A stretch of 64,000 bases of DNA from Acidobacteriota bacterium (GTDB lineage: Bacteria > Acidobacteriota > Terriglobia > Terriglobales > Acidobacteriaceae): positions 1-64,000 of the forward strand of contig JANYDG010000021.1 in NCBI GenBank assembly GCA_025359885.1, read 5' to 3'. Below are positions 33,423-59,861 of the stretch, piece after piece. Each line of letters starts with the position of its first letter. Positions within the stretch are counted from its first letter, which is position 1. The notes below the pieces were generated by a model. That model ran no database searches. It saw only the letters and a list, made by a program, of their open reading frames with translations, and was not told where the DNA came from. The position numbers and the translations under genes were made by a program.

Positions 33423-34778
33423 CTACTCGTCCAGCAGCACAATCAGGGTTAACTCAGGCGAGGGAATTTCACCAGGAACATACACCCCGATCTGTCGCGT
33501 CTGCACGATGTGTTCCCAGCAGGGGCCACTGCGGTTGATGGCGAAATACTGGCTCTCAACGCGCGCGGCAATCTGCGGCGGCGGCACTAACAGGTGATTC
33601 AACGGCAGGCCCGGCAAAGCTCGTTTAATGAGCTCAAGCACAAATCGCTGTGAGCAGGTTTTCACCAGCTTGGGTGCGCGGCTGATCAGGTCTGCTTCGC
33701 CAATTGGCGAACTGATCTCGAGAATCCAGCGCGCGGGTCCCAGGCAGCGCTCATCGCGCAGTTCGCCGTGATACAGAAAGCTCTCCACTGCCTTCAACGG
33801 AATCTTGATGGCCTTGGAGGGCATGACGATTTCCAGATGGCGGCGAATGTGGTCGTCGAGGGCGGCAAACTGTGCGCCCAACTCTTTGTGATCGTATGCA
33901 GGAAGCGAGCGCGGGTGCACATCGAGGCCAAAGGTGCAGAGAGCACCGGCAAGCCGCGACATTTCGCGGAACAACTCCTGCGGGTGGGCATGCTTTGACA
34001 GCAAAAAGTGCCGCAGGGAAGAGACATTTGAATTGAGCGCATGCAAAAACCAATACTGCGCTACATGCCGCGCCGACATGCCTGCCTGAAAGACCCCGTT
34101 GCGCTGCTGTTGCTCGTTCGTAAAGACAGTGCTCTTCTCGTCCAGAATCTCAATCAGCCGCCGCAGAATACCGGTCAGCACCGGGCTCGCGCTCAGGTTC
34201 AGGCACGGAGGAATGAACGTTGGGTCAGCTTCAAACCGCCCCGATCCGTCGCGCAACACGCGCACCAGGGCCAGGCTGGCGAACTTGTCAGTGACTTCAG
34301 CTTCACTCAGTAATTGCAGATTCTTGCGGCCCACGCGGATCTGCTTCTCGTCCCGGCCTGTATTCTGGTCGGGCATAGGCTGCTCTATGCCGTGAAAGCG
34401 CAGGGTAGGGGAGTTGTTATCGTCCACGCTCGTGTTGCGGCCGTCTGGCAGGTCAACGGGTACCGCCAGATGTAGCGTCAGGTGGTCGGCGACCGGCGAA
34501 AAAAGCGGCCGGAAGTCGCGCGGCTCAGGCGCTGCATCGGAGCCGGGCAGGTCAAAGGCCAGCCCATCCTCAAACAGCCCGCGCGCATGCGCCAGCGAAA
34601 GCGTTCCATTGCGCAGGGCGTCTGCATCAAACTGCAATCCGGCAAAGCCATTCGCATCGCGCCACAAGCTCGCCGTAACAAAGTTCAGCGAGTCTTCAAA
34701 GTAGCGGTTCTGCGCCTGAAAATGATGGGGCCCCAGGTACATGCCTTCTGACCACACGGGTTTTGTGAGTTGTTTCAT
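33423..34778 (-). CDS. tssK: Type VI secretion baseplate subunit TssK, copy A (operon-distal)
   Basis: TssK trimers link the T6SS baseplate wedges (TssE-F-G) to the membrane complex (TssL-M). The N-terminal shoulder motif is present (PVWSEGMYLGPHHFQAQNRYFED), the middle helical bundle includes RHVAQYWFLHALNSN, and the C-terminal head ends GVYVPGEIPSPELTLIVLLDE. The length of 451 aa is standard. It is the last gene of the minus-strand operon and starts 5 bases after the stop of an equally long tssK. The two align over their full length but differ at many positions, so they are long-diverged paralogues, not a recent duplication. Confidence 0.92.
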   Translation of the reverse strand: MKQLTKPVWSEGMYLGPHHFQAQNRYFEDSLNFVTASLWRDANGFAGLQFDADALRNGTLSLAHARGLFEDGLAFDLPGSDAAPEPRDFRPLFSPVADHLTLHLAVPVDLPDGRNTSVDDNNSPTLRFHGIEQPMPDQNTGRDEKQIRVGRKNLQLLSEAEVTDKFASLALVRVLRDGSGRFEADPTFIPPCLNLSASPVLTGILRRLIEILDEKSTVFTNEQQQRNGVFQAGMSARHVAQYWFLHALNSNVSSLRHFLLSKHAHPQELFREMSRLAGALCTFGLDVHPRSLPAYDHKELGAQFAALDDHIRRHLEIVMPSKAIKIPLKAVESFLYHGELRDERCLGPARWILEISSPIGEADLISRAPKLVKTCSQRFVLELIKRALPGLPLNHLLVPPPQIAARVESQYFAINRSGPCWEHIVQTRQIGVYVPGEIPSPELTLIVLLDE

Positions 34779-34783
34779 GTGCG

Positions 34784-36139
34784 TCAGCCCGCCTGCGGCA
34801 GCAGGATGATCAATTCCATCTGCGGATTGGAAAAATCGCCCGGTACATGGGCAGCGAGATTGCGGGCACGGGTGACCGTGTCCCAGGCTGCCCCGGCCTG
34901 ATTCATGCTGAAGTATTGATACTTCATCTTGATCGGAATAGCGCTCGGCGGCGTCGGTACATGCGTCAGTTGAATGCCCGGCAACGCGCTGCTGATGAGT
35001 TGTTCAATATGCGACGCCGAGCACACTTTGACCAACTGTGGCACCCTGCGAATAATCGAATCCTCACTCGAATCCGCATTGAATGCCAGATACATCCGCG
35101 TGTTGCTGAGATACTTGTCCTTGTCAATTGCGGTCGCATAGATCGTGTTATTCACATGCTTCAGCGGCAGCGAAACAACGTTTGTCGGCACCACAGTCTC
35201 GAGCAGCAGACGCAGCTTTTCGTCCAGATCGGTGAAAACCTTGCTGAGGTTGAGGTGGTCATAGAGAGGTAGGTCCCTGGGCCGGATCGTGGTCGAAAAT
35301 GTGGTGAGCGACGAGCCCAGCGCAGTGAGCGCTGAGAAGAGTTCTTCCGGGTGACAGCGCTGCCCCTGCAATAGATGGCTCAGCACTGGAATATTCGAAT
35401 TCACCGTGTAGAGCAGCCAGAAATTAGCAATGTCGGCGGCAGTAAAGTCGGCCAGGCTCTGGTTCTTCTGGCGGCGTCCGCCGGAGAGCTGCGTGCTCTT
35501 CGCCGACAGGATTTCAAGCAGCCCGTTGATAATCCCGAGCAGGTATTCACTGGCCCGGACCTCAAGCAGCGGCGGCACAAAACGCGTGTTCAATCGAAAT
35601 GCCCCTGCCTCGGTGCGTTCAATATTGGCCACACGCAGCGCCGAACAGCCTTCGCGGCTTTCATTGGCAGCCAGCAGGCGCAGATTCTTGCGCGCAATCT
35701 GAATTGGCTTTTCGCCCGTCCCTGTGTTGTCATCGCGTACCGACGTGATCTCGGCCATATAACGCGCCCCACCTACCCGGCCTAGTCCCGTTACATTCAG
35801 ACCCTTGAGCTTGTAGTCGGGCACCGTGAGGTAAATATCGAGGTCGCGCATTCCCGGGTCAAAGAACTCAGCCAGCGCCTTCGATGGGGGCGGCTGGTCA
35901 GGCCCTGGAATATCAAACAGCAATCCATCCGGAAAGATACCCGACGCCCGCGAAATCGCCAATTGCCCGTCCGTCAGCAACTCCTGATCGAGCACAATTT
36001 CGTTGAAGCCCCAGGCACAGAACTTGAGCGCCTGCAGACGGAAATTGAGGCTGTCTTCGAGAAATCGATCCTGAAGCTGCAAATGCTGCGGCGTCAGAAA
36101 AGTGCCCTTGGACCAGAGAACGGGTTGAAGTTGTTTCAT
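34784..36139 (-). CDS. tssK: Type VI secretion baseplate subunit TssK, copy B (operon-proximal)
   Basis: Second TssK of identical length (451 aa). N-terminal PVLWSKGTFLTPQHLQLQDRFLEDSLNF matches the family pattern, ADIANFWLLYTVNSN matches the helical bundle, and the C-terminus is AAHVPGDFSNPQMELIILLPQ. It is followed directly by copy A and preceded by vgrG with an 83-base gap. All T6SS-specific landmarks are intact in both copies, so neither looks like a pseudogene. A mixed TssK trimer or two alternative connectors are possible. Confidence 0.92.
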   Translation of the reverse strand: MKQLQPVLWSKGTFLTPQHLQLQDRFLEDSLNFRLQALKFCAWGFNEIVLDQELLTDGQLAISRASGIFPDGLLFDIPGPDQPPPSKALAEFFDPGMRDLDIYLTVPDYKLKGLNVTGLGRVGGARYMAEITSVRDDNTGTGEKPIQIARKNLRLLAANESREGCSALRVANIERTEAGAFRLNTRFVPPLLEVRASEYLLGIINGLLEILSAKSTQLSGGRRQKNQSLADFTAADIANFWLLYTVNSNIPVLSHLLQGQRCHPEELFSALTALGSSLTTFSTTIRPRDLPLYDHLNLSKVFTDLDEKLRLLLETVVPTNVVSLPLKHVNNTIYATAIDKDKYLSNTRMYLAFNADSSEDSIIRRVPQLVKVCSASHIEQLISSALPGIQLTHVPTPPSAIPIKMKYQYFSMNQAGAAWDTVTRARNLAAHVPGDFSNPQMELIILLPQAG

Positions 36140-38314: not shown

Positions 38315-39112
38315 TCAGCGGGGAGTTTTGACTTTGTTCTCTTTTGGCTTGGCAACAGGATGATAGAACCAAATCGTTCCGCTCACCTCTATCTTGAGAC
38401 TAGACCCATCAGCAAGCTTGCGTTGCCCTGCCTTGTAATCGAGTTGATTTCTCTTGATCACTTCAGAAAGCCTGTTCTCTTCGCGATCCATAACGTGCTG
38501 CTCAACAATCGTCAGGGAACCATCCGCATTCTTGGCAATCAAGATAGCAGAGTGCTGTGGACCCCGGATCATCTCGTACGGCCCTCGATCGCTCCGGTCA
38601 GGAGTATAGGTCGTTTTGAAGTTGCGGAACTGGATCATGTCACCGGGGCGGATCTTGTCCTGATCCGGCTCAAGATCACCCCATTTGTAGTCCTGGTCGC
38701 GACGACCGGTAACCCTTTCAAAGTCGTTGGCGCTCTTTGCTCCAAGATTCTTGAGAACCGTGTCCAGCAAATCGAAGCATTCCTTGCGACCAACTGAAGG
38801 CCTGCCGACCATCTCTTCGCTGGCCTGCGTTACATAGATTGAGAGGTTCAAATTTGCCTGCTGCTTTTCCTTCTCAATGTCTGCCGGAGTCTTCGGGTCG
38901 CCATCGCCAACCTTGTCTGAGAGTTCAATCGGCGTGAGATGTCTGCCTGCGCTCGAGTCTGGCGAAGGAATCGAACGAGGATTGGTTCCCGCGTCTGTGC
39001 CAGCTGGCCTGGGGTTCCGGGACGCACCTGGCCCGCCCCCGCCGCGTGGTGCGTCGGGGTGGGCCAATTCGCCGAGACCGTTGATCCAGGGTAAAGTTGC
39101 CGGGTCGCCCAA
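38315..39112 (-). CDS. Putative T6SS cargo/effector with NlpC/P60- or CHAP-like cysteine peptidase region
   Basis: 265-aa protein between clpV and vgrG in the T6SS operon. Residues 1-60 are Pro/Gly-rich and disordered-looking. The folded part (about 95-250) has the order expected of a papain-fold amidase: GRKECFDLLD with the only Cys (C112) at a helix start, KIRPGDMIQFRN, PQHSAILIAKN with H187, and TIVEQHV as a possible third position. Such enzymes often cut peptidoglycan peptides. There is no signal peptide. The start is TTG 39112, since a stop lies just upstream in frame. No immunity gene fits in the flanking 34- and 49-base gaps. The family call is inference. Confidence 0.6.
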   Translation of the reverse strand: MGDPATLPWINGLGELAHPDAPRGGGGPGASRNPRPAGTDAGTNPRSIPSPDSSAGRHLTPIELSDKVGDGDPKTPADIEKEKQQANLNLSIYVTQASEEMVGRPSVGRKECFDLLDTVLKNLGAKSANDFERVTGRRDQDYKWGDLEPDQDKIRPGDMIQFRNFKTTYTPDRSDRGPYEMIRGPQHSAILIAKNADGSLTIVEQHVMDREENRLSEVIKRNQLDYKAGQRKLADGSSLKIEVSGTIWFYHPVAKPKENKVKTPR

Positions 39113-50741: not shown

Positions 50742-52211
50742 ATGCTGACGCCACTTTCCCAAGCTGATTCCCAGAGGCTCATCGCCCTCTTCAAAGAGGT
50801 GGGCTACACCGAAACCAACCTCCGCAGCTACCTGGGCTCTGCTGAGTTGCCCTCCAGCCAATTGCGCAACCAGGCACGGCTTCTGGATCACACCCGGGAA
50901 GCAACCCCGCTCAACGCCCTCCTGCGCTGGTTCTGGCTCCATATCCCCCAGGCAGAGGCAGCCAGCGCCCCCCTCTTTGAAAATTGGTTGCTCCCCTTGT
51001 TGGTGCAGTGCGGGCTGCTGCGCCGCGACGGTGATAACCTCGCTCCCCTCGCCATGCTGCTCCCCTATGACAGCTTTCTCGTTGCCTCCGACCATCCCGT
51101 GGCAATTGAGCGGCAGGAGTCCGAGATGGTGCTGTGGCCCAACCCCACCAGCAAATTCCTCTCCCGCTTCGCCGTCCGTCGGCCCTCTCGCGCCACCCTT
51201 GACCTGGGTACAGGCAGCGGCATCCTTTCTCTCGGTGCTGCGCGTCATAGTGAACTGGTCGTGGCCACCGATCTAAACCCCCGCGCCGTCGCCTTCACCA
51301 AGTTCAACGCCAGCCTCAACGGGGTCAACTGCATCGAGGCCCTGGTCGGCGATTGCTTTGCCCCCGTCGCCGGTCGCCGCTTCGATCTCATCCTTTCCAA
51401 CCCGCCCTTCTTCATCACCCCTGAAACCGGGTACATGTTCTGCGAAAACTCCATGGAGCTCGACCAGCTCTGCCGCCGCCTTGTCAAGGAAGCCCCCGCC
51501 CATCTCGAAGAAGGCGGTTACATGCAGATGCTCTGCGAGTGGGCCCAGATCGAGGGGCAACCCTGGGAAGATCGGATCGCTGAATGGCTTGAAGGCACCG
51601 GCTGCGATGCCTGGGTGATGAAAGGGCTTACCCAGAACCCGACCGAGTACGCCCAGCACCGCATCCGCGAAACTGCCCAGGATTCAAGCCATGACGCCGA
51701 GTTATACCAGGGCTACATGTCCTACTACCGCAAGCGCGGTGTGCAGGCTATCCACGACGGCCTCATCGTCATGCGCCGCCGCAGTGCCCCCAACTGGGTC
51801 CGCATTGAAGAGGTGCCCAAAACCCCCACCGGTGATCTCGGCGAACTCGTCCTCTCAACCTTTGCCGCAATGGACCTGGTTCGCGCCATGGAGAACGATG
51901 AAGAACTCCTCCACGCCCGGCCCAGGCTCTCGCCCCATGTGCGGCTCGAACAAATCTGCGATCAGGTTGACGGCCACTGGCATGCCCAATCTCTCACCCT
52001 GCGCCTGACCAGCGGTTTTCCTTTTCACATGAACATCCAGCCGCTCGTTGCAGATTTCCTCGCCACCTGTGACGGCAGTCTTACCGCTGAAGACGCCATT
52101 CACGGCTTTGCCGCGCTCGCCCAGGCGCCCATCGAAACCGTGCGCCGCGAATGCCTCGCCATGCTGCGTAAACTCATCGAACGCGGCTTTATTCTCGCAA
52201 ATCCAGCCTGA
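50742..52211 (+). CDS. Class I SAM-dependent methyltransferase with N-terminal winged-helix-like extension
   Basis: 489-aa methyltransferase. Residues 1-140 form a helical extension (LIALFKEVGYTETNLRSYLG, LLRWFWLHIPQAEAASAPLFENWLLPLLVQCGLL). The catalytic domain (about 145-290) has motif I DLGTGSGIL, an acidic residue in VATDLNPRAV, and motif IV NPPFF, the signature of N-methylation of Gln, adenine or guanine by HemK/RlmG-type enzymes. A further C-terminal domain (about 350-485) has HTH-like character (LTAEDAIHGFAALAQAPIETVRRECLAML). The target is likely an RNA or protein. It stands inside the T6SS region but no family link to secretion is known. Confidence 0.8.
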   Translation: MLTPLSQADSQRLIALFKEVGYTETNLRSYLGSAELPSSQLRNQARLLDHTREATPLNALLRWFWLHIPQAEAASAPLFENWLLPLLVQCGLLRRDGDNLAPLAMLLPYDSFLVASDHPVAIERQESEMVLWPNPTSKFLSRFAVRRPSRATLDLGTGSGILSLGAARHSELVVATDLNPRAVAFTKFNASLNGVNCIEALVGDCFAPVAGRRFDLILSNPPFFITPETGYMFCENSMELDQLCRRLVKEAPAHLEEGGYMQMLCEWAQIEGQPWEDRIAEWLEGTGCDAWVMKGLTQNPTEYAQHRIRETAQDSSHDAELYQGYMSYYRKRGVQAIHDGLIVMRRRSAPNWVRIEEVPKTPTGDLGELVLSTFAAMDLVRAMENDEELLHARPRLSPHVRLEQICDQVDGHWHAQSLTLRLTSGFPFHMNIQPLVADFLATCDGSLTAEDAIHGFAALAQAPIETVRRECLAMLRKLIERGFILANPA

Positions 52212-52360: not shown

Positions 52361-52642
52361 ATGCCCAAATTGACCGGAAACCTGCGCGTCAAAACAATTC
52401 CCGGCAACGCCGGTGCACGGCCCTGTTATGAAGTGGTCTTCGTTCCTTACGCCGGGCGACTCGCTACCAGACCAGCCATCGCCAACAACCACGACGAGCT
52501 GGTCTCCCTCCTGATGGATCTCAAATTCAGTGAAGACGACGCCATGCGGTGGGCAGGCAAGGTACGCTCTGAGGGCCTGGTGCTCATCGCCAGCGTCGAG
52601 CGCACAGATTCGCTTCTACGCGAGCGCGGGCTGCTGGCCTGA
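52361..52642 (+). CDS. Small conserved-looking hypothetical protein
   Basis: 93-aa soluble protein that I do not recognise. It shows a beta-strand-rich start (NLRVKTIPGNAGARPCYEVVFVPYAGRLATRPA) and a helical, acidic end (DELVSLLMDLKFSEDDAMRWAGKVRSEG), and no signal peptide or membrane segment. It starts 150 bases after the methyltransferase gene on the same strand; AGGGCCACCCT before the ATG offers only a poor ribosome site. Codon use resembles its neighbours. It converges with the repeat-protein gene over 18 bases. Confidence 0.6.
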   Translation: MPKLTGNLRVKTIPGNAGARPCYEVVFVPYAGRLATRPAIANNHDELVSLLMDLKFSEDDAMRWAGKVRSEGLVLIASVERTDSLLRERGLLA

Positions 52643-52660: not shown

Positions 52661-54211
52661 TTACTTCCCCTTCAGCGCAAAAATAACTACCAGTAAAATC
52701 ACGACCAGCAGAAATGTGTTCACGATCAGCAGAATCGGAACCATCTCCTCCAGCTTTGATTTAGGCGCTGGCGGCGGCGACAGCACCGGCGGCGCAGGTG
52801 CAATGGGCAACTTGGGCGCAGTAAATACCGGGGCAGCCGGAACCGCATGAGGCACCGGAGCCGCAACTGCCACCTGGGGCACGGCAGGCACCGCCACCGC
52901 TGGTAAAGTCATAGCCGGGCCTGCCGGCGCCGTAGCCGGAACAGCCGCAGCCTGACCAGCCGCAGCCGCCGGACCACCCACCTTCGTCTTCCCCGTCTGC
53001 CCGGTAATAATCCGCGTAAATTCCCCAGGCTCTTCAGAAAATGCGGCAGGCGCAACCGGGCGCGGTGCCTCCGCTACTGGCGGTGGCGCAGCCGGCGTGC
53101 TCAACTTTTGCGTGTCTGAGAGCCGTTGGATCAGCCGCGTCACGCTGCCTTCCTCCGGGCCCGCCTGCATCGGTGGCAAAGCCTGTGCAGACGACGACTG
53201 CGTCGGTTGAGGAGAATAAAACGCAGGCGATTCCGTCCGGGCAGGCCTGCCTGGTTCCGGCGAGTAAGACGCTCCCCCGGAGAGCGAATTCAGAATCCCC
53301 GTCGCGCTCGTCGAATTTGTCGAATTTGTCGAATTTGTTGAATTTGTCGGGTCCGATCTGTCCGACGCCCCCGAGAAACCCGCCGGTCCGGCAGATTCGC
53401 GCACCGGCGGCTCCTGCGGCCACTTGAAGTCATCCTTGAACGTCGCCGCTGCTGCAACCGGCGTCTGTGGCGGATAGCTCTGCGCTGGCGGTGTCGGCGG
53501 CGTATAAGTCTGCACCACCGGTTTCGCTGCCGCTGCCCCGCCACCGGCCAAGGGAGCGTTGAAAAACTGCGTAAAGCTGCCTTCCTTCGCAGCCGAATCG
53601 GAAACTCCCGGTGTCGAAAAGCCCTTCAACTTCGGCGCGGCTGAGGTTGCCGCCGCAGCAGGCACGGCTGCTTCAGGCATGCCCTGTGGTTTCGCGCTTT
53701 GAACTGGAGTTGCTGGCCACTCATGTGCAACTTCAGAAGCGAAATTCGCAGGCTTTGCGGCAGCTGGACCAAGACCCACACCAGCGCCTGCACTCCCACC
53801 TGGAGCCAAAAAGATGCTGGTAAACTCCCCGGGCGTTGCTCCGCTTTCCGATCTCGGACTACCGCCAATTCCCGAGGTCGCCGGTGCTGATGGCCCGCTC
53901 GAATACGGGGCAGGGGGCATCGGCGCCGCAACCGGTTTCATCTCCGGCGACATAAACAGGCTCGTAAACTCCCCCGGCGTCCCCGCCGAAGCCGGCGCTG
54001 CGCTTACCGCAGGCTTCGGCGCTTCAGCCCGAGATGCTTCGCGCTGGCCAGCCGGAGCGCCCAGCAAGTCCGCCAATGGGTCAGGCTTGGCAGCCGCTTC
54101 GCTCCCAAATGCCCGCAAAAACATTCCCGTTGCGCTCAGGGAATCCGCCTGCTCATCGTGCTCATCCTGGCCCATGGGAGCCGCCCCAGGGTTGCCGTCG
54201 TTACTCTTCAT
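52661..54211 (-). CDS. Tail-anchored Pro/Ala-rich protein with repeated PGEFT motifs, T6SS-linked, function unknown
   Basis: 516-aa low-complexity protein. A short motif recurs along a disordered Pro/Ala/Ser chain: TPGEFTSLFMSP, TPGEFTSIFLAPG, KEGSFTQFFNAP and EPGEFTRIITGQ, with a related GSVTRLIQRL. The N-terminus has a similar amphipathic piece (SATGMFLRAFG, DPLADLLGAP). The only membrane segment is the last 27 residues (MVPILLIVNTFLLVVILLVVIF then ALKGK), so it is tail-anchored with nearly all of the chain in the cytoplasm. It is divergent from tssL-tssM. The motifs look like short linear docking sites. No known T6SS component matches, so a role in the membrane complex is inference. Confidence 0.75.
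   Translation of the reverse strand: MKSNDGNPGAAPMGQDEHDEQADSLSATGMFLRAFGSEAAAKPDPLADLLGAPAGQREASRAEAPKPAVSAAPASAGTPGEFTSLFMSPEMKPVAAPMPPAPYSSGPSAPATSGIGGSPRSESGATPGEFTSIFLAPGGSAGAGVGLGPAAAKPANFASEVAHEWPATPVQSAKPQGMPEAAVPAAAATSAAPKLKGFSTPGVSDSAAKEGSFTQFFNAPLAGGGAAAAKPVVQTYTPPTPPAQSYPPQTPVAAAATFKDDFKWPQEPPVRESAGPAGFSGASDRSDPTNSTNSTNSTNSTSATGILNSLSGGASYSPEPGRPARTESPAFYSPQPTQSSSAQALPPMQAGPEEGSVTRLIQRLSDTQKLSTPAAPPPVAEAPRPVAPAAFSEEPGEFTRIITGQTGKTKVGGPAAAAGQAAAVPATAPAGPAMTLPAVAVPAVPQVAVAAPVPHAVPAAPVFTAPKLPIAPAPPVLSPPPAPKSKLEEMVPILLIVNTFLLVVILLVVIFALKGK
53311..53346. repeat. 9-bp tandem repeat (4 units) inside the PGEFT-repeat gene
   Basis: Three perfect copies of TCGAATTTG and one TTGAATTTG run head to tail and encode Asn-Ser-Thr four times on the minus strand. 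Changes in copy number would keep the reading frame. Confidence 0.85.
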
Positions 54212-54656
54212 GCGAAGCGGGTCCTTTCCGTTTCAAAAGCATCACTCTCTGCGCAGCTTACATCCGCCAGATTCCGCCGTAAAGGGCGAGGAGGCAGCCC
54301 TGCATCTGCGCTGGGAGATTCGCCCATCCGCAGTTTTCAAACTTCCTGTTGCTTGAGGAATTATGGCACTTTCCCCGTTCCTCTGATTTTCTTATCCCCC
54401 ACACTTGCAGTTGAGGTATGCTCATCATGTTTTTCATACCGTTCACGCAGCAGGATTTCAGCTCCATTGCAAGCCAGCCTTGCGAATGACTCTGCCCAGG
54501 CTGCACAGGCATTCGCGTTGCATTTGGCTCCAATCCACGCCCGGCATCGCCCGGCAAGTTGTATCAAGCCCGGTTTTTATCAAGTCTGGTTTTTATCAAG
54601 TCCGGTTCTATGCAAGTCTGGTTCTACCAAGTCCTGTCCAATGGGGTCCTATTCCA
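54212..54656. promoter_or_regulatory. Divergent intergenic region before tssL
   Basis: 445 bases between the tail-anchored protein gene (-) and tssL (+). An open frame runs through it into tssL from 54405, but the sequence shows no conserved coding features, so I treat it as leader. Its last 95 bases hold the 16-base tandem repeats listed separately. Promoters for both genes should be here. Confidence 0.5.
54563..54640 (+). repeat. Five imperfect 16-base tandem repeats just upstream of tssL
   Basis: Units at 54563, 54579, 54595, 54610 and 54626 (16, 16, 15, 16 and 15 bases) follow the pattern ATCAAGTCTGGTTTTT, with the core CAAG(T/C)C(T/C)GGTT. The array ends 16 bases before the tssL ATG. 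Confidence 0.75.
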
Positions 54657-55388
54657 ATGAGTGATACCGCACCGCGCACCCACAGCCTGGCATCCTGCTA
54701 CGAAAATGCATACACCATCATCCTCCGGCTCGCCGCCGTCCAGCAGCAGGCCGTGCCCAACGCGCAGGCCTTCCGTTCCAGCATCCGCGCCGCCCTCAAG
54801 ACCGCCATGGAGCAGGCCAAGGCCCTCGGCTACTCCAGCGAAATCAACCAGCTCGCCTTTTTCGCCCTCGTAGCCCTGCTCGACGAAAGCGTCCTCAAGC
54901 TGCAAAGCCCTGCTTTTGCAGAATGGGCCCAGCGGCCACTCCAGGAAGAAATCTTCGCCCATAATCGCGCCGGCGAAGTCTTCTTTGAGCATCTGCGTAC
55001 CCTGCTCTCCCGCCAGGATTCCCACGAGACAGCCGACGGCCTCGAAGTCTACAGCCTCTGCATGCTCCTCGGATTCAAAGGGCAGTACGCCCTCAGCTCC
55101 GCGGGTACAGACTATTTCCTCGGCCAATCCGGCAGCTCCACGAGCGCCCGCCCCAACAGCGAAATTCAAGCCCTCATCCGACAGGCTCGTGAAAAAATCA
55201 CGCGCATTCGCGGCCAGGAGATATTTCTCCGCTCCGGTGCGCCCGCACCCGCAGTCAAGCAGACCGCCCTCATTGACCGCTGGAGCCGCAACCTCGGCAT
55301 CGCCGCCATTTGCCTCTTCGCCCTCTCGATTCTGGCCTTCATCGGCTTCTGGATTGCCCTGAACTCTGGCCTTTCCCAGATCGGTTAG
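54657..55388 (+). CDS. tssL: Type VI secretion membrane-complex protein TssL (DotU/IcmH)
   Basis: Inner-membrane protein with a large cytoplasmic domain that contacts TssK and TssM. It has DotU features (INQLAFFALVALLDESVLKL, FFEHLRTLLSRQD, YSLCMLLGFKGQYAL) and a single C-terminal TM helix (IAAICLFALSILAFIGFWIAL). It ends there, so it lacks the peptidoglycan-binding OmpA extension of evolved TssL. ATG 54657 gives 243 aa. The in-frame open region further upstream reads through tandem repeats and looks non-coding. tssM starts 26 bases after it. Confidence 0.92.
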   Translation: MSDTAPRTHSLASCYENAYTIILRLAAVQQQAVPNAQAFRSSIRAALKTAMEQAKALGYSSEINQLAFFALVALLDESVLKLQSPAFAEWAQRPLQEEIFAHNRAGEVFFEHLRTLLSRQDSHETADGLEVYSLCMLLGFKGQYALSSAGTDYFLGQSGSSTSARPNSEIQALIRQAREKITRIRGQEIFLRSGAPAPAVKQTALIDRWSRNLGIAAICLFALSILAFIGFWIALNSGLSQIG

Positions 55389-55414
55389 CCACTCACCTAC
55401 CCCGGGGGACTTCC

Positions 55415-58400
55415 TTGCTCATCTATCTATTAGTCGTTGCTGTAGTTCTCGTTGCCGCTCTGCTGGCCTTTGGCCTTGGAGCTCTGCTTCCTATCTCGGG
55501 AACTGCCTACTGGCTCTTCGTCGTCATCGTTCTCGTCGTCGGCCTCGCTGCAGCTGTCACCATCCTCATCCTCCACCTCCGCAAGAAAAAGGCAGAGGCA
55601 GCCCTCGGCCCTGTCAGCGGCGACACCAGCGAGCTGGACCTCCTGCTCAATGACGCCAACCGCAAGCTCAAAACATCCCAGCAGGGCGCTAAAGCCCTCG
55701 ATTCCTTCCCACTCATCTACATCCTCGGTGACGCCGGTACGGCGAAAACCACCCAGGTCCTCCGCTCCGGCCTCGATCCTGAACTCCTCGGCGGCACGGC
55801 TCCCCGCGATGGAGAGGTCACCCCGACCCCACTCGTCAATCTCTGGTTCACCCGCCAGGCCACAATCCTCGAGCTCGGCGAGGCCGTTCGCCAGAGCGGC
55901 CGCCTCCTCACCCGCCTCGTTGAACGCACCCGAGCCAAAGCCATGCGTTCCGCCTTCGGCTCCGGGGCCGCCTCGCGCGTCGCCGTCGTATCGATCAGCG
56001 CCGAACAGTTGCTTGTCGCCGATGCCGGTGCTTCGTCGCTCGCATCCGCGCGAGCCACCGGCGCTCAGCTTCGCGAGATCAGCCGCCTCCTCGGCACACC
56101 GCTCCCCGTCTACGTCCTCATCACCAAGCTCGATCGAGTACCCCACTTCGCTGAATACGTCCGAAACCTTTCAAATGATGAGGCCAGCCAGATCCTCGGC
56201 ATGACCCTGCCCAAATCAGAGGCATCTGCCGGCGTCTACGCCGACCAGGCCACCCGCGAACTCTCCGCCGTCCTTGATGCCCTCAGCTATTCACTCGGCG
56301 AATTTCGCGTCGAGATGCTCTCCCGCGAAACCGAGCCCGCCAGCGCTCCCGGCGTCTACGAGTTCCCCCGCGAATTCGGCAAGCTCCGCAAAAATCTCAA
56401 CCAGTTTCTCGTCGAACTCTGCAAGCCCAGCCACCTCAGCGTCAATCCCTACCTGCGCGGCTTCTACTTCACCGGCATCCGCGCCCAGGTCGTCGAGCGC
56501 CTCTCTGCCCCTGCAGCACAGGCAGCGGAACCACAAATCTCCAGCGACGCCGGTGCCACCCAGTACCTAAATATCTCCATTGGTAAAGGGGCCGCAGCCA
56601 ATCGACCCTCTGCCCAGCCCACCATGGTCAGCGCTCGCGTTCCCCAGTGGACTTTCCTGCCCCGCCTCTTCCCCCAGGTCATCCTCGGCGACAAGAGCGC
56701 GCAATCCGCCACCCAGCAGACTGCCCCGGCCCGCCTCTTCCGCCGCATTCTTTTTGCCTCGGTGGGCTTGATCTTTCTCATCTATACCGTGCTGCTCTTC
56801 GTGTCTTATCTCAACAACGCCTCGCTCGAGCGCAGCATCGTAGACGCCGCCCACGCTCTGCCCATCACCGGCGGCTCTAACCCAACACCCAGTACCGCCG
56901 ACCTCCAGTCCCTCGACCAGCTTCGCCAGACCATCGTCCAGATCGACAGCTATGAAAAGGGCCACCCGCCCCTCAGCTATCGCTGGGGCCTCTATCAGGG
57001 AGAGAAGCTCTCCGCCCGGGCCCGCCGCGTCTACTATGGCCGCTTCCGCCCCATCTTCCTCGCCCCGGCCCAGGCCAACTTCATCACCTACCTCAAGAGC
57101 CTGCCCGACGCCCCCGCTCCCGGCACCGATTACAGCTTCTTCACCGCTGGCTACAACCCGCTCAAGTCCTATCTCATCACCGCCGGCAACCACGACAAGA
57201 GCGTCTCCGCCTTCCTCACCCCCGTCTTTCTCCAATATTGGATCAACGCCCGCTCGGTTGACGCAGTTCAGCAGGATCTGGCCCGTAAGCAGATTGACTT
57301 CTACGCCAACGACCTCGTCCGCCAGGACCCGTATTCCATCCAGGCCGACAGCGGCGTCGTCCAGCACGCACGTGGGTACTTGAATAGCTTTGGTGGCGGA
57401 CCCCGCGTCTACCAGGCCATGCTCTCTGACGCAGACAAGAAAAACCCCGGCATCGACTTCAACATCCTCTACCCCGGCTCGGAACGCTACGTCGTCGACC
57501 ATCGCCACGTCAGCGGAGCCTACTCCCGCACCGGCTTTGCCTTCATGAAAGACGCCATCCTGCATGCCGAGCGCTACTTTGCCGGCGAAAGCTGGGTACT
57601 CGGAGACCAGGCCGCAAATTCGCTCGACCTAAACAAGATCAAGGCCGATCTCGCCACCACCTATCCCAACGACTTCATCGCCCAATGGCGCGACTTCCTC
57701 GCCAGGGCCAGCATCGTTGGCTGCGGCTCCATGCACGAGGCTCCAGACCATTTGAACTCCCTCGCCGGCTCCGGTTCACCCCTCCTTGAACTGCTCTATA
57801 CCGTCGCCCACAACACCACCGTCGATGACCTCCAGATCAAAGCAGCCTTCGAATCCTCGCAGAAAATGGTCAACCCCGAGGCCGTCGGCGTCTTCATTGG
57901 CCCCGGCAACCAGAGCTACGTCGGCAAATTGCTCGATATCGCAGCCGCAATCAGTCTCGTTGCAGCCAATCCAAATCCCGACCCCGCCGCTGGCCTCGCC
58001 GTTTCGACAGCCGCCGTCAACGCCCGTACAGCTCTTCAGGTCACGGCTCAGACCTTTCCCGCAGACGCCGTCCACACCGACCGCACCCGCGTCCTCGAAC
58101 TTCTCAATGAGCCCATCACCTGCGCCGACGGCCTCGCAAACGCCATCGGCTCAGCTCCCGCCAACGGAGCAGGCGCAAAAATCTGCAGCGCCATCCGGCC
58201 CTTGCTCGCCAAATTCCCATTCAACCCCGGCTCCACCACTGAAGCCACCATCCCCGAAGTGAATGCCGCATTTGCGCCTGAATCCGGCGCCCTCTGGTCC
58301 GCGTACAACACCGCGCTCAAACCCTTGATGCCCCTGCAAGGCTCAACCTACGTCGCCACCGCGCCCAAAATCAACCCGGCCTTCGTGCAGTTCTTCAATC

Positions 58401-58840
58401 GAGCTGCACAGATTTCCAACAAGCTCTACGCTCCCGGTGCGCAAAACCCCTACTTCGCCTTTAACCTGCGTTTCATCACCGCCAACGGCGTCTCCAACCC
58501 TGCCATCGTCATGGACGGCCAGCGCGTCTCAAACGGCGCAAACGCCCAGCAGTTCAAATGGTCCGGCCCCGACGCCCACCAGGCCTCACTCGTCTATGAC
58601 GGCGGCGAAGTGCCATTCCAGGGCACCTGGTCCGTCTTCAACCTCTTCAAACTCGCCCAGCGCAGCAAGAGTTCCGACGGCACCCGTCTCGACTTCCCGC
58701 TTGTCACCTCGATCGCCGGACACACCATCGCCGGCGGTAGCGGCCGTGGCGTCAGCTACGACCTCACCGGCCCAGGCGCTGACCTGCTCAACCCCGGCTA
58801 CTTCGCCGGCCTCAACTGCACAGCAAATGTCATGAAATAG
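55415..58840 (+). CDS. tssM: Type VI secretion membrane-complex protein TssM (IcmF)
   Basis: 1141-aa inner-membrane anchor spanning to the periplasm. Two N-terminal TM helices (about residues 1-50) precede the cytoplasmic NTPase-like domain with Walker A GDAGTAKTT and VYVLITKLDRVPHFAEYV. A third TM (about 440-465, ILFASVGLIFLIYTVLLFV) leads to the long periplasmic region. That includes the IcmF-related ERYFAGESWVLGDQ block and a C-terminal beta domain. TTG 55415 follows GGGGGA and opens exactly at TM1. The open frame back to 55310 overlaps tssL and is unlikely. The periplasmic part would normally meet TssJ, which I did not find. Confidence 0.93.
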   Translation: MLIYLLVVAVVLVAALLAFGLGALLPISGTAYWLFVVIVLVVGLAAAVTILILHLRKKKAEAALGPVSGDTSELDLLLNDANRKLKTSQQGAKALDSFPLIYILGDAGTAKTTQVLRSGLDPELLGGTAPRDGEVTPTPLVNLWFTRQATILELGEAVRQSGRLLTRLVERTRAKAMRSAFGSGAASRVAVVSISAEQLLVADAGASSLASARATGAQLREISRLLGTPLPVYVLITKLDRVPHFAEYVRNLSNDEASQILGMTLPKSEASAGVYADQATRELSAVLDALSYSLGEFRVEMLSRETEPASAPGVYEFPREFGKLRKNLNQFLVELCKPSHLSVNPYLRGFYFTGIRAQVVERLSAPAAQAAEPQISSDAGATQYLNISIGKGAAANRPSAQPTMVSARVPQWTFLPRLFPQVILGDKSAQSATQQTAPARLFRRILFASVGLIFLIYTVLLFVSYLNNASLERSIVDAAHALPITGGSNPTPSTADLQSLDQLRQTIVQIDSYEKGHPPLSYRWGLYQGEKLSARARRVYYGRFRPIFLAPAQANFITYLKSLPDAPAPGTDYSFFTAGYNPLKSYLITAGNHDKSVSAFLTPVFLQYWINARSVDAVQQDLARKQIDFYANDLVRQDPYSIQADSGVVQHARGYLNSFGGGPRVYQAMLSDADKKNPGIDFNILYPGSERYVVDHRHVSGAYSRTGFAFMKDAILHAERYFAGESWVLGDQAANSLDLNKIKADLATTYPNDFIAQWRDFLARASIVGCGSMHEAPDHLNSLAGSGSPLLELLYTVAHNTTVDDLQIKAAFESSQKMVNPEAVGVFIGPGNQSYVGKLLDIAAAISLVAANPNPDPAAGLAVSTAAVNARTALQVTAQTFPADAVHTDRTRVLELLNEPITCADGLANAIGSAPANGAGAKICSAIRPLLAKFPFNPGSTTEATIPEVNAAFAPESGALWSAYNTALKPLMPLQGSTYVATAPKINPAFVQFFNRAAQISNKLYAPGAQNPYFAFNLRFITANGVSNPAIVMDGQRVSNGANAQQFKWSGPDAHQASLVYDGGEVPFQGTWSVFNLFKLAQRSKSSDGTRLDFPLVTSIAGHTIAGGSGRGVSYDLTGPGADLLNPGYFAGLNCTANVMK

Positions 58841-59045: not shown

Positions 59046-59861
59046 TCAATCTACTTTTGAAAAACCAATCTCAGCAGATGTCAGTGCAGGCCCCTCGGCC
59101 TTCTCATAAACCCGCAGCAGGATGCACGTAATATTGTCCGCACCCCCTCGCGATTTCGCCAGGTCGATCAGATTCTGGCAAACCCACGGCAGGTCTGTCG
59201 CCCCACTGGCCGTCGCCGCAATCTCATCCGACTGCACATACCGCGTCAACCCATCCGAAGCAAGCAGGAAAAGATCGTCCAGCTGAAGACCAACCGCAAA
59301 CAGGTCTGCCTCTACGTTTTCAATCACACCAATGGCGCGCGTAATCACCGATTGCAGGTTTGAGGCTGCCGCCATCTCCGGCGTAAAGCTTCCGCTGCGC
59401 AACTGCTCTTCCAGAAATGAGTGGTCCAGCGTCACCTGCGTGCAAACGCCGTTCCGAATCAGGTATCCCCGGCTATCGCCCACATTGCCCAGCACAATTC
59501 GAGCGCCATCCAGGCACGCACATACCAGCGTCGTACCCATCCCGCGCAAATCAGGGTTCTCTTCAGCCATCTGGCATACCTGCCGATTCGCGTGAAGTAT
59601 CGCCTGAGCCAGCCGTTTATCCACCGGCAGAGTCGCCCCAGCCGCCGCCGCTTCCAGACCCTGCGCTTCATAGGATTCGATCAGCACCCGCACTGCTGTA
59701 CCGCTGGCCACCTCGCCCGCCGCGCTCCCTCCCATGCCGTCACAGACGACATAGAGGTGCGCCTCGGCATCATAGCCAAAGCTGTCTTCGTTATTGCCGC
59801 GTCGGCAGCCAATATCAGTGGCTGCTGCAAAGTCGAGGGAGAAGGCGGTTGTCTGGGTCAT
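59046..59861 (-). CDS. PP2C-family Ser/Thr protein phosphatase (PppA-like), T6SS-associated
   Basis: Metal-dependent phosphatase of 271 aa. All PP2C motifs are intact: RRGNNEDSF, YVVCDGMGGSAAGEVAS, GMGTTLV, LGNVGDSRGYLIRNG, LLASDGLTRYV and GGADNITCILLRVY. In several T6SSs a PppA phosphatase reverses phosphorylation of the FHA protein by the kinase PpkA and so shuts secretion off. Its place between tssM and the PAAR-like gene supports that role. No kinase or FHA gene is visible in the window. It converges with tssM over a terminator hairpin. Confidence 0.9.
   Translation of the reverse strand: MTQTTAFSLDFAAATDIGCRRGNNEDSFGYDAEAHLYVVCDGMGGSAAGEVASGTAVRVLIESYEAQGLEAAAAGATLPVDKRLAQAILHANRQVCQMAEENPDLRGMGTTLVCACLDGARIVLGNVGDSRGYLIRNGVCTQVTLDHSFLEEQLRSGSFTPEMAAASNLQSVITRAIGVIENVEADLFAVGLQLDDLFLLASDGLTRYVQSDEIAATASGATDLPWVCQNLIDLAKSRGGADNITCILLRVYEKAEGPALTSAEIGFSKVD

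What the first reader, a model, noticed from the sequence alone, without database searches (positions are those of the whole stretch)
52661..54211. Unrecognised tail-anchored PGEFT-repeat protein divergent from tssL-tssM
At least four copies of a G-E/S-F-T-x-hydrophobic-F/I motif are spread along a disordered cytoplasmic chain that ends in one C-terminal TM helix. Repeated short motifs on a membrane tether look like docking sites for several copies of one partner. No known T6SS subunit has this design, and this system lacks visible TssJ and FHA proteins, so it may replace or add a scaffold function.
Basis: partly seen in the sequence, partly recalled or inferred. Interest (0 to 1): 0.72.

Follow-up and report, generated by a model that had tools for sequence, protein, structure and literature searches.

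The report
Tail-anchored repeat scaffold of T6SS
A long, floppy, membrane-tethered protein carrying several copies of one short motif is a so far unnamed, conserved companion of a soil-bacterial type VI secretion 'harpoon', and probably gathers the machine's parts at the membrane.

Summary
P0001 (52661-54211, minus strand, 516 aa) has five GxFT-type motifs, a related N-terminal motif and one C-terminal TM helix; 0 of 20,000 shuffles had even two motifs. No Pfam or NCBIfam model matches.
It belongs to an unnamed family. I collected 79 members (Acidobacteriota, Gemmatimonadota, one Myxococcales MAG) with 453 motif copies, consensus P-G-E-F-T-R-M-F, Thr kept in 354 of 356. Of 63 whose 3' end is in view, 60 end in a TM helix. 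All 60 members with a recognisable 5' neighbour are divergent from tssK1 (53) or tssL (7). In 299 Terriglobia genomes, arrays sit in 39 of 73 sheath-positive and 1 of 226 sheath-negative genomes; that one has tssK-tssL-tssM beside its array.
New: 54 of 79 carry an isolated protein-kinase N-lobe as head, with His at the catalytic Lys position; the window's clade lacks it. TssJ matched in 0 of 78 genomes, FHA not in the window's genome.
Most likely a multivalent membrane scaffold, an analogue of Fha/PpkA condensates. Partner binding is untested.

The parts
52661..54211 (-). GxFT-repeat, tail-anchored protein P0001 (516 aa)
   Evidence: orthologues in G001 and G010 and G648
54107..54136 (-). N-terminal motif SATGMFLRAF (residues 26-35), best-conserved block between four orthologues
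53954..53974 (-). motif 1 GEFTSLF (80-86)
53810..53830 (-). motif 2 GEFTSIF (128-134)
53561..53581 (-). motif 3 GSFTQFF (211-217)
53129..53149 (-). motif 4 GSVTRLI (355-361)
53006..53026 (-). motif 5 GEFTRII (396-402)
52676..52741 (-). C-terminal TM helix (about residues 491-512; AF2 helix 486-514), followed by two to four residues
   Evidence: hydropathy; AF2; conserved in orthologues
54405..55388 (+). tssL (DotU), divergent neighbour
   Evidence: PF09850 E 2e-37
55310..58840 (+). tssM (IcmF)
   Evidence: PF06761 E 1e-54
59046..59861 (-). PP2C-type Ser/Thr phosphatase
33423..34778 (-). tssK paralogue 1; its counterpart is the usual divergent neighbour of the GxFT gene elsewhere
34784..36139 (-). 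tssK paralogue 2
   Evidence: 36% identical to paralogue 1
50742..52211 (+). PrmC/HemK-like methyltransferase, in 13 other loci the co-directional gene behind the GxFT gene

Best explanation
P0001 is a member of a conserved, unnamed family of T6SS accessory proteins: (kinase N-lobe-like head, absent in this clade) - long disordered chain with 2 to 16 GxFTxhh motifs - single C-terminal TM anchor. The chain lies in the cytoplasm at the inner membrane and works as a multivalent scaffold ('stickers and spacers'): each motif makes the same weak contact, with a T6SS baseplate or membrane-complex protein (TssK1 or TssL are the best candidates) and/or with other motifs, so that tethered chains concentrate baseplate and TssL-TssM at the assembly site. 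It would do the job that Fha and PpkA condensates do in a proteobacterial T6SS. Shown here: motif, anchor, genetic linkage, co-occurrence, N-lobe head in relatives, no family-model match for FHA in this genome or for TssJ. Inferred: topology, binding, clustering, partner.
For: Linkage: 50 of 59 members found by a motif scan blind to T6SS lie in a fetched stretch that holds a T6SS gene; the other nine are in genomes with two or more TssK matches (9 of 9). Of 79 members, 60 have a recognised 5' neighbour and all 60 are divergent from tssK1 or tssL; 40 of these 60 come from the blind scan. Co-occurrence: Fisher p = 2e-27. Where the DNA pattern missed an array in sheath-positive genomes, 14 of 20 readable tssM loci hold a GxFT protein at that place, one more a member with a single GEYTRMM copy (L249), and one an N-lobe plus TM protein with other repeats (L270). 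Selection: motifs 78% identical, linkers 28%, between four orthologues; with the other positions fixed, Thr in 354 of 356 copies, F in 297 of 317, G in 297 of 311. Copy number varies from 2 to 16, as expected for multivalent binding rather than one fixed interface. Positions 2 and 5 vary together (E/D with R/K), also within single proteins (92/24 against 17/33). P0001 has no confidently folded part but the C-terminal helix (two-sequence alignment). Precedent: in Acidovorax citrulli, PpkA and Fha are reported to form condensates that recruit T6SS components, and PpkA without its TM segment formed no foci in cells (PMC12607579, passages read).
Against: No interaction, localisation or condensate was tested. 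The partner is a guess: in the window's clade the gene stays with tssL while tssK1 lies elsewhere in the cluster. Four of 20 readable array-negative loci lack the protein (G579, G472, G628, G480), the distant T6SS of G025 has none in 20 kb, and 57 of 60 sheath-positive genomes in the phylum-wide sample show no array by the DNA pattern, although three of those 57 (G209, G286, G389) do hold a member when read. So the protein is not part of every acidobacterial T6SS. Motif copies in one protein, and related proteins, are not independent observations.
Confidence: 0.6

Rival explanations
1. [quoted passage not shown] the reader is not an FHA protein.
For: Thr is almost never replaced, not even by Ser (354 T, 1 S, 1 A). 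A PP2C phosphatase lies beside tssM in the window and in several relatives, and a PknB-like kinase lies on the same contig (L241:9000-13121). The N-lobe head points to a kinase ancestry. A Ser/Thr kinase in a Candidatus Solibacter MAG with two tssK genes carries one GEFTRMF copy behind its kinase domain.
Against: No FHA match in the window's genome. In a Pfam tally of 73 neighbouring ORFs only three match the kinase family (only the 25 commonest families are printed). No phosphorylation data. A Thr can be kept for structural reasons.
Confidence: 0.25
2. Classical threonine-phosphorylation pathway: motif Thr are docking sites for an FHA-domain (Fha-type) protein.
For: Fha binds phospho-Thr14 of TssL in Agrobacterium (PMC3953482, abstract read).
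Against: PF00498 finds no FHA in G000 (94.8% complete) nor in G599, both with the GxFT protein. In the eight other genomes searched the FHA matches lie outside the T6SS stretches that I read; the nearest, in G631, is about 9 kb beyond the end of the stretch, so a link there is not excluded.
Confidence: 0.05
3. Replacement for TssJ: the protein completes the TssL-TssM membrane complex across the envelope.
For: TssJ (PF12790) matches in 0 of 78 genomes searched, 77 of them sheath-positive.
Against: Only two to four residues follow the TM helix, so there is no periplasmic part to reach the outer membrane; TssJ is just as absent from genomes in which I saw no GxFT protein at tssK-tssL (G579, G472, G628, G480).
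Confidence: 0.04
4. A drifting low-complexity protein, or an effector, that merely lies in the cluster.
For: Low-complexity, fast-evolving linkers.
Against: Motifs and tail are conserved against the linkers, motif and anchor recur across phyla, gene order is fixed, and a C-terminal TM anchor does not suit a secreted effector.
Confidence: 0.04

Closest known systems
PpkA, T6SS inner-membrane Ser/Thr kinase
   Same: Cytoplasmic kinase-related head and one TM segment; condensates that recruit T6SS components are reported for Acidovorax citrulli PpkA (PMC12607579, passages).
   Different: Here the head, when present, is an N-lobe only with His at the catalytic Lys position; the window's protein has no head; there is no periplasmic domain; it has GxFT repeats.
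Fha / TagH, FHA-domain T6SS scaffold
   Same: Proposed role: cytoplasmic assembly scaffold that gathers T6SS proteins.
   Different: No FHA domain; membrane-anchored; repeats. No FHA match in the window's genome.
TssN of Bacteroidota T6SS (TssNQOPR complex)
   Same: A lineage-specific membrane protein that binds the baseplate protein TssK (PMC10781749, passages).
   Different: There it is part of a complex that stands in for TssJ-TssL-TssM; here TssL and TssM are present. No sequence comparison was made.
FG-repeat nucleoporins (recalled, not tested)
   Same: Short aromatic motifs spaced along a disordered chain, multivalent weak binding.
   Different: No homology claimed.

Membership tests
GxFT-repeat T6SS accessory family (defined here) | At least two GxFTxhh motifs in a Pro/Ala-rich chain | tested here: met
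   for P0001; the 79 members were selected by this feature
GxFT-repeat T6SS accessory family (defined here) | One TM helix at the C-terminus | tested here: met
   for P0001; 60 of 79 members have a hydrophobic stretch in the last 45 residues; of the other 19, 16 are cut at the 3' side of the locus, L062 is broken by masked bases, and L099 and L119 carry an extension behind the helix
GxFT-repeat T6SS accessory family (defined here) | Gene divergent from tssK1 or tssL | tested here: met
   60 of 60 with a recognised 5' neighbour, window included; 19 of 79 had none in view
GxFT-repeat T6SS accessory family (defined here) | Kinase N-lobe-like head (common, not universal) | tested here: not met
   a model built from 38 heads (37 of them from these members or closely like them) finds it in 54 of 79 members, but not in P0001 nor in the other 11 members from genomes of the window's family
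Protein kinase superfamily (head domain of relatives) | N-lobe fold: five strands and helix C | tested here: met
Protein kinase superfamily (head domain of relatives) | Catalytic Lys in strand 3 and a C-lobe | tested here: not met
   H35 in 90% or more of 38 sequences at the place of the VAIK Lys (alignment; the kinase motif is recalled); no C-lobe, repeats follow
Fha / TagH | FHA domain | tested here: not met
   P0001: no Pfam family; genome G000: no PF00498 match
PpkA | Complete Ser/Thr kinase domain | tested here: not met
   P0001; heads of relatives; five full-length relatives against NCBIfam:
TssJ | SciN lipoprotein domain PF12790 | tested here: not met
Multivalent condensate scaffold | Forms clusters or droplets and recruits T6SS clients | not testable with these tools
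   needs microscopy and purified protein

The most novel reading that the evidence does not exclude
A T6SS type of Acidobacteriota, Gemmatimonadota and some Myxococcota is nucleated by a membrane-tethered condensate made of GxFT 'stickers', a TssJ-less and FHA-less route to assembly. The scaffold descends from a PpkA-like kinase that kept only its N-lobe and TM anchor and gained repeats; other proteins (a kinase in L061, a VWA-like protein in L132) join by carrying one GEFTRMF copy.
Probability: 0.35. Interest if true: 0.9.

Novelty: new variant of a known kind. Interest (0 to 1): 0.74.

Why it matters
It adds an unannotated, strongly linked component to a T6SS of abundant soil phyla, where no TssJ outer-membrane anchor is recognisable and, in this genome, no FHA protein. 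It gives a clear sequence handle (GxFTxhh copies, 2 to 16 per chain) on how a contractile weapon may be positioned and nucleated at a membrane, and on how a kinase may turn into a scaffold. A conserved motif with an almost invariant Thr makes phosphorylation, docking and phase-separation models directly testable by point mutation and by changing copy number.

Tried and rejected
Known domain in P0001: none in Pfam or NCBIfam. Missed start with an N-lobe upstream in the window: the frame is open for only seven codons upstream of the ATG (523 against 516 residues), so no. FHA docking: disfavoured for this genome. TssJ substitution: rejected as main reading. The DNA pattern in the phylum sample: 92 of 396 genomes matched, mostly single or scattered copies; beyond the window's genome two had close pairs (G311, G151), and both have a sheath match on the same contig. 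Single GEFTRMF copies in PAS/histidine kinases (L104, L135) and in non-acidobacterial contigs I take as chance. P0001 as query found only close relatives (3 of 41 genomes) and missed G005, which has a divergent member at the same place; BLAST-type searches under-count this family. Literature: PGEFT gave three unrelated papers (listing only), and GEFTRMF, GEFTRLF and PGEFTRM none. Searches for acidobacterial T6SS, tail-anchored or disordered T6SS scaffolds, condensates and pseudokinases in T6SS listed nothing that by title and abstract start describes this protein; I read passages in five papers (PMC10781749, PMC4793230, PMC12607579, PMC2660368, PMC6300606) and the abstract of PMC3953482. The library holds open-licence papers only.

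L128 and L255 were dropped as duplicates of L038 and L087; L249 (one copy) and L270 (other repeats) are not counted among the 79. In one search, 9 of 29 tssM loci of array-negative genomes ran off a contig before the place could be seen and were set aside; two fragmentary tssM matches were not fetched; of four array-positive regions fetched as controls, two (L273, L275) held the array and two (L274, L276), centred on the sheath gene, held neither tssM nor an array; likewise L238 to L240 around other sheath genes held no array in view. The head model was built from heads of the same members it was run on. In one search, six short edge ORFs of the 79 listed were left out. The array list for one search was counted by hand.

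Full report
What is in the window. The ORF at 52661-54211 (minus) encodes 516 residues. Five motif copies fit G-[E/S]-[F/V]-T-x-h-[F/I/L]; in 20,000 shuffles the motif appeared once in 10 and never twice. A C-terminal TM helix is the only strongly hydrophobic stretch, with two to four residues after it. An AlphaFold2 model on a two-sequence alignment has pLDDT below 50 in 427 of 516 residues; the confident element is the helix 486-514, with weak helices at 27-36 and 355-369, the N-terminal and fourth motifs. No Pfam or NCBIfam family matches. The gene stands divergent from tssL-tssM in a T6SS cluster with two tssK, vgrG, clpV, tssG, tssF, tssE, tssA, impE, hcp, tssC, tssB, tssL, tssM, a PP2C phosphatase and a DUF4280 PAAR-like protein.

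Close relatives. Of 41 related genomes, the BLAST-type search finds P0001 in three: the window's genome, G001 and G010. All three have the T6SS sheath, and the two relatives show the same gene order in the stretch fetched. G001's contig has the same length as Acidicapsa dinghuensis 4GSKX scaffold 7 and gives the same matches (L128), so the window's genus is probably Acidicapsa (inference). With a fourth orthologue from G648, motifs are 78% identical on average, the tail 71% and the rest 28%; the best-kept block is the N-terminal SATGMFLRAF.

The family. Sixty of these belong to one kind of gene: Pro/Ala-rich, repeated motifs, C-terminal TM. The other 20 are single copies elsewhere, four of them in Acidobacteria: a Ser/Thr kinase (L061), two PAS/histidine kinases (L104, L135) and a VWA-like protein (L132) (the last two kinds named from my reading of the sequence). 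With members from whole genomes I collected 79 proteins and 453 motif copies; the commonest residues are P-G-E-F-T-R-M-F-Q-A-P. With the other positions fixed, Thr is kept in 354 of 356. Copies per protein run from 2 to 16. Sixty have a hydrophobic C-terminus; of the other 19, 16 are cut at the 3' side. Positions 2 and 5 vary together, also inside single proteins that hold both kinds (92 acidic with R/K, 24 acidic with other, 17 other with R/K, 33 other with other); copies are not independent.

T6SS linkage. Of the 59 non-duplicate members from the scan, which did not look for T6SS, 50 have a T6SS gene in the fetched stretch and the other nine lie in genomes with two or more TssK matches. In all 79, a 5' neighbour could be named for 60 (40 of them from the scan), and every one is divergent: 53 tssK1, 7 tssL. 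On the 3' side, of 42 named neighbours 24 are a convergent tssK2, 13 a co-directional PrmC-like methyltransferase, 4 a convergent 93-aa ORF and 1 tssB. In 299 Terriglobia genomes, 73 have the sheath protein and 40 have at least three same-strand GEFTxhF matches; 39 of these 40 are among the 73 (Fisher p = 2e-27), and the fortieth, G557, carries tssK-tssL-tssM beside its array. Of the 34 sheath-positive genomes without such an array, 26 have tssM; of 29 tssM loci fetched, 20 show the place in question. There, 14 hold a GxFT protein with at least two motifs, one (L249) an N-lobe, TM and a single GEYTRMM, one (L270) an N-lobe, TM and other repeats, and four hold none. G005 of the same genus has a divergent member with SGGFTQLL/GPGSFTQLM repeats at that place. 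In the wider phylum sample, 60 of 396 genomes are sheath-positive, and the pattern shows clusters in only three of them: the window's genome, G311 and G151; at least three more of the 60 (G209, G286, G389) hold a member that the pattern misses. So the family is not part of every acidobacterial T6SS, at least not with this motif.

What is missing. TssJ (PF12790) matches in none of 78 genomes, 77 of them sheath-positive. An FHA domain is found in 8 of 10 genomes but not in the window's own, which is 94.8% complete, nor in G599.

How it most likely works. Shown: repeated conserved motifs, anchor, fixed place beside tssK1/tssL, co-occurrence, kinase-like head in relatives. Inferred: the chain is cytoplasmic and anchored in the inner membrane; the motifs are equal weak binding units; they gather baseplate and TssL-TssM. 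PpkA and Fha of Acidovorax citrulli are reported to form condensates that recruit T6SS components, and PpkA without its TM segment formed no foci in cells (PMC12607579, passages). The GxFT chain could be a counterpart where Fha is missing. The partner is open: tssK1 is the usual neighbour, but in the window's clade the gene stands by tssL and tssK1 lies elsewhere. A phospho-switch on the Thr is the main rival and compatible with a scaffold: a PP2C phosphatase sits beside tssM, and a PknB-like kinase lies about 9 kb further on the same contig.

Known or new. NCBIfam has no model for the six members tested; Pfam was tried on P0001 and on the heads. The motif is absent from the open-licence literature searched. 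It works like a known kind of thing, a T6SS assembly scaffold, but is not a member of Fha, PpkA or TssJ. I therefore call it a new variant of a known kind.

Noticed in passing
33423-34778 and 34784-36139: Two tssK paralogues, 36% identical; both kinds recur in GxFT-positive loci, one by tssL-tssM and one by tssBC. The E. coli wedge holds two TssK trimers (PMC6300606, passages), so the two paralogues might each form one trimer.
   Followed up: partly
50742-52211: PrmC/HemK-like methyltransferase; in 13 loci of other genomes it is the co-directional named gene behind the GxFT gene, so it may modify the chain or a T6SS protein.
   Followed up: partly
52361-52642: 93-aa ORF without Pfam or NCBIfam match, convergent with the GxFT gene in the window, G001, G010 and G648; also present in G472, where no GxFT protein was seen.
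   Followed up: no
38315-39112: ORF beside vgrG with a weak Pfam match to a cysteine-proteinase-fold domain (AIM3/BBC1_C, E 4e-7); possible T6SS effector.
   Followed up: no
L061:3-947: Ser/Thr kinase of a Candidatus Solibacter MAG, cut by the contig end, with one GEFTRMF copy behind the kinase domain, in a genome with two tssK.
   Followed up: partly
L132: VWA-like protein of a Bryobacteraceae MAG with one PEPGEFTRMF copy, in a genome with two tssK (domain named from my reading of the sequence).
   Followed up: no
L270:8017-9567: N-lobe-like plus TM protein at the same place in a more distant T6SS (G536), with other short repeats (TEFxxMF-like) in place of GxFT.
   Followed up: partly
L241:9000-13121 (beyond the window, same contig): Long PknB-like Ser/Thr kinase about 9 kb beyond the T6SS genes.
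   Followed up: no
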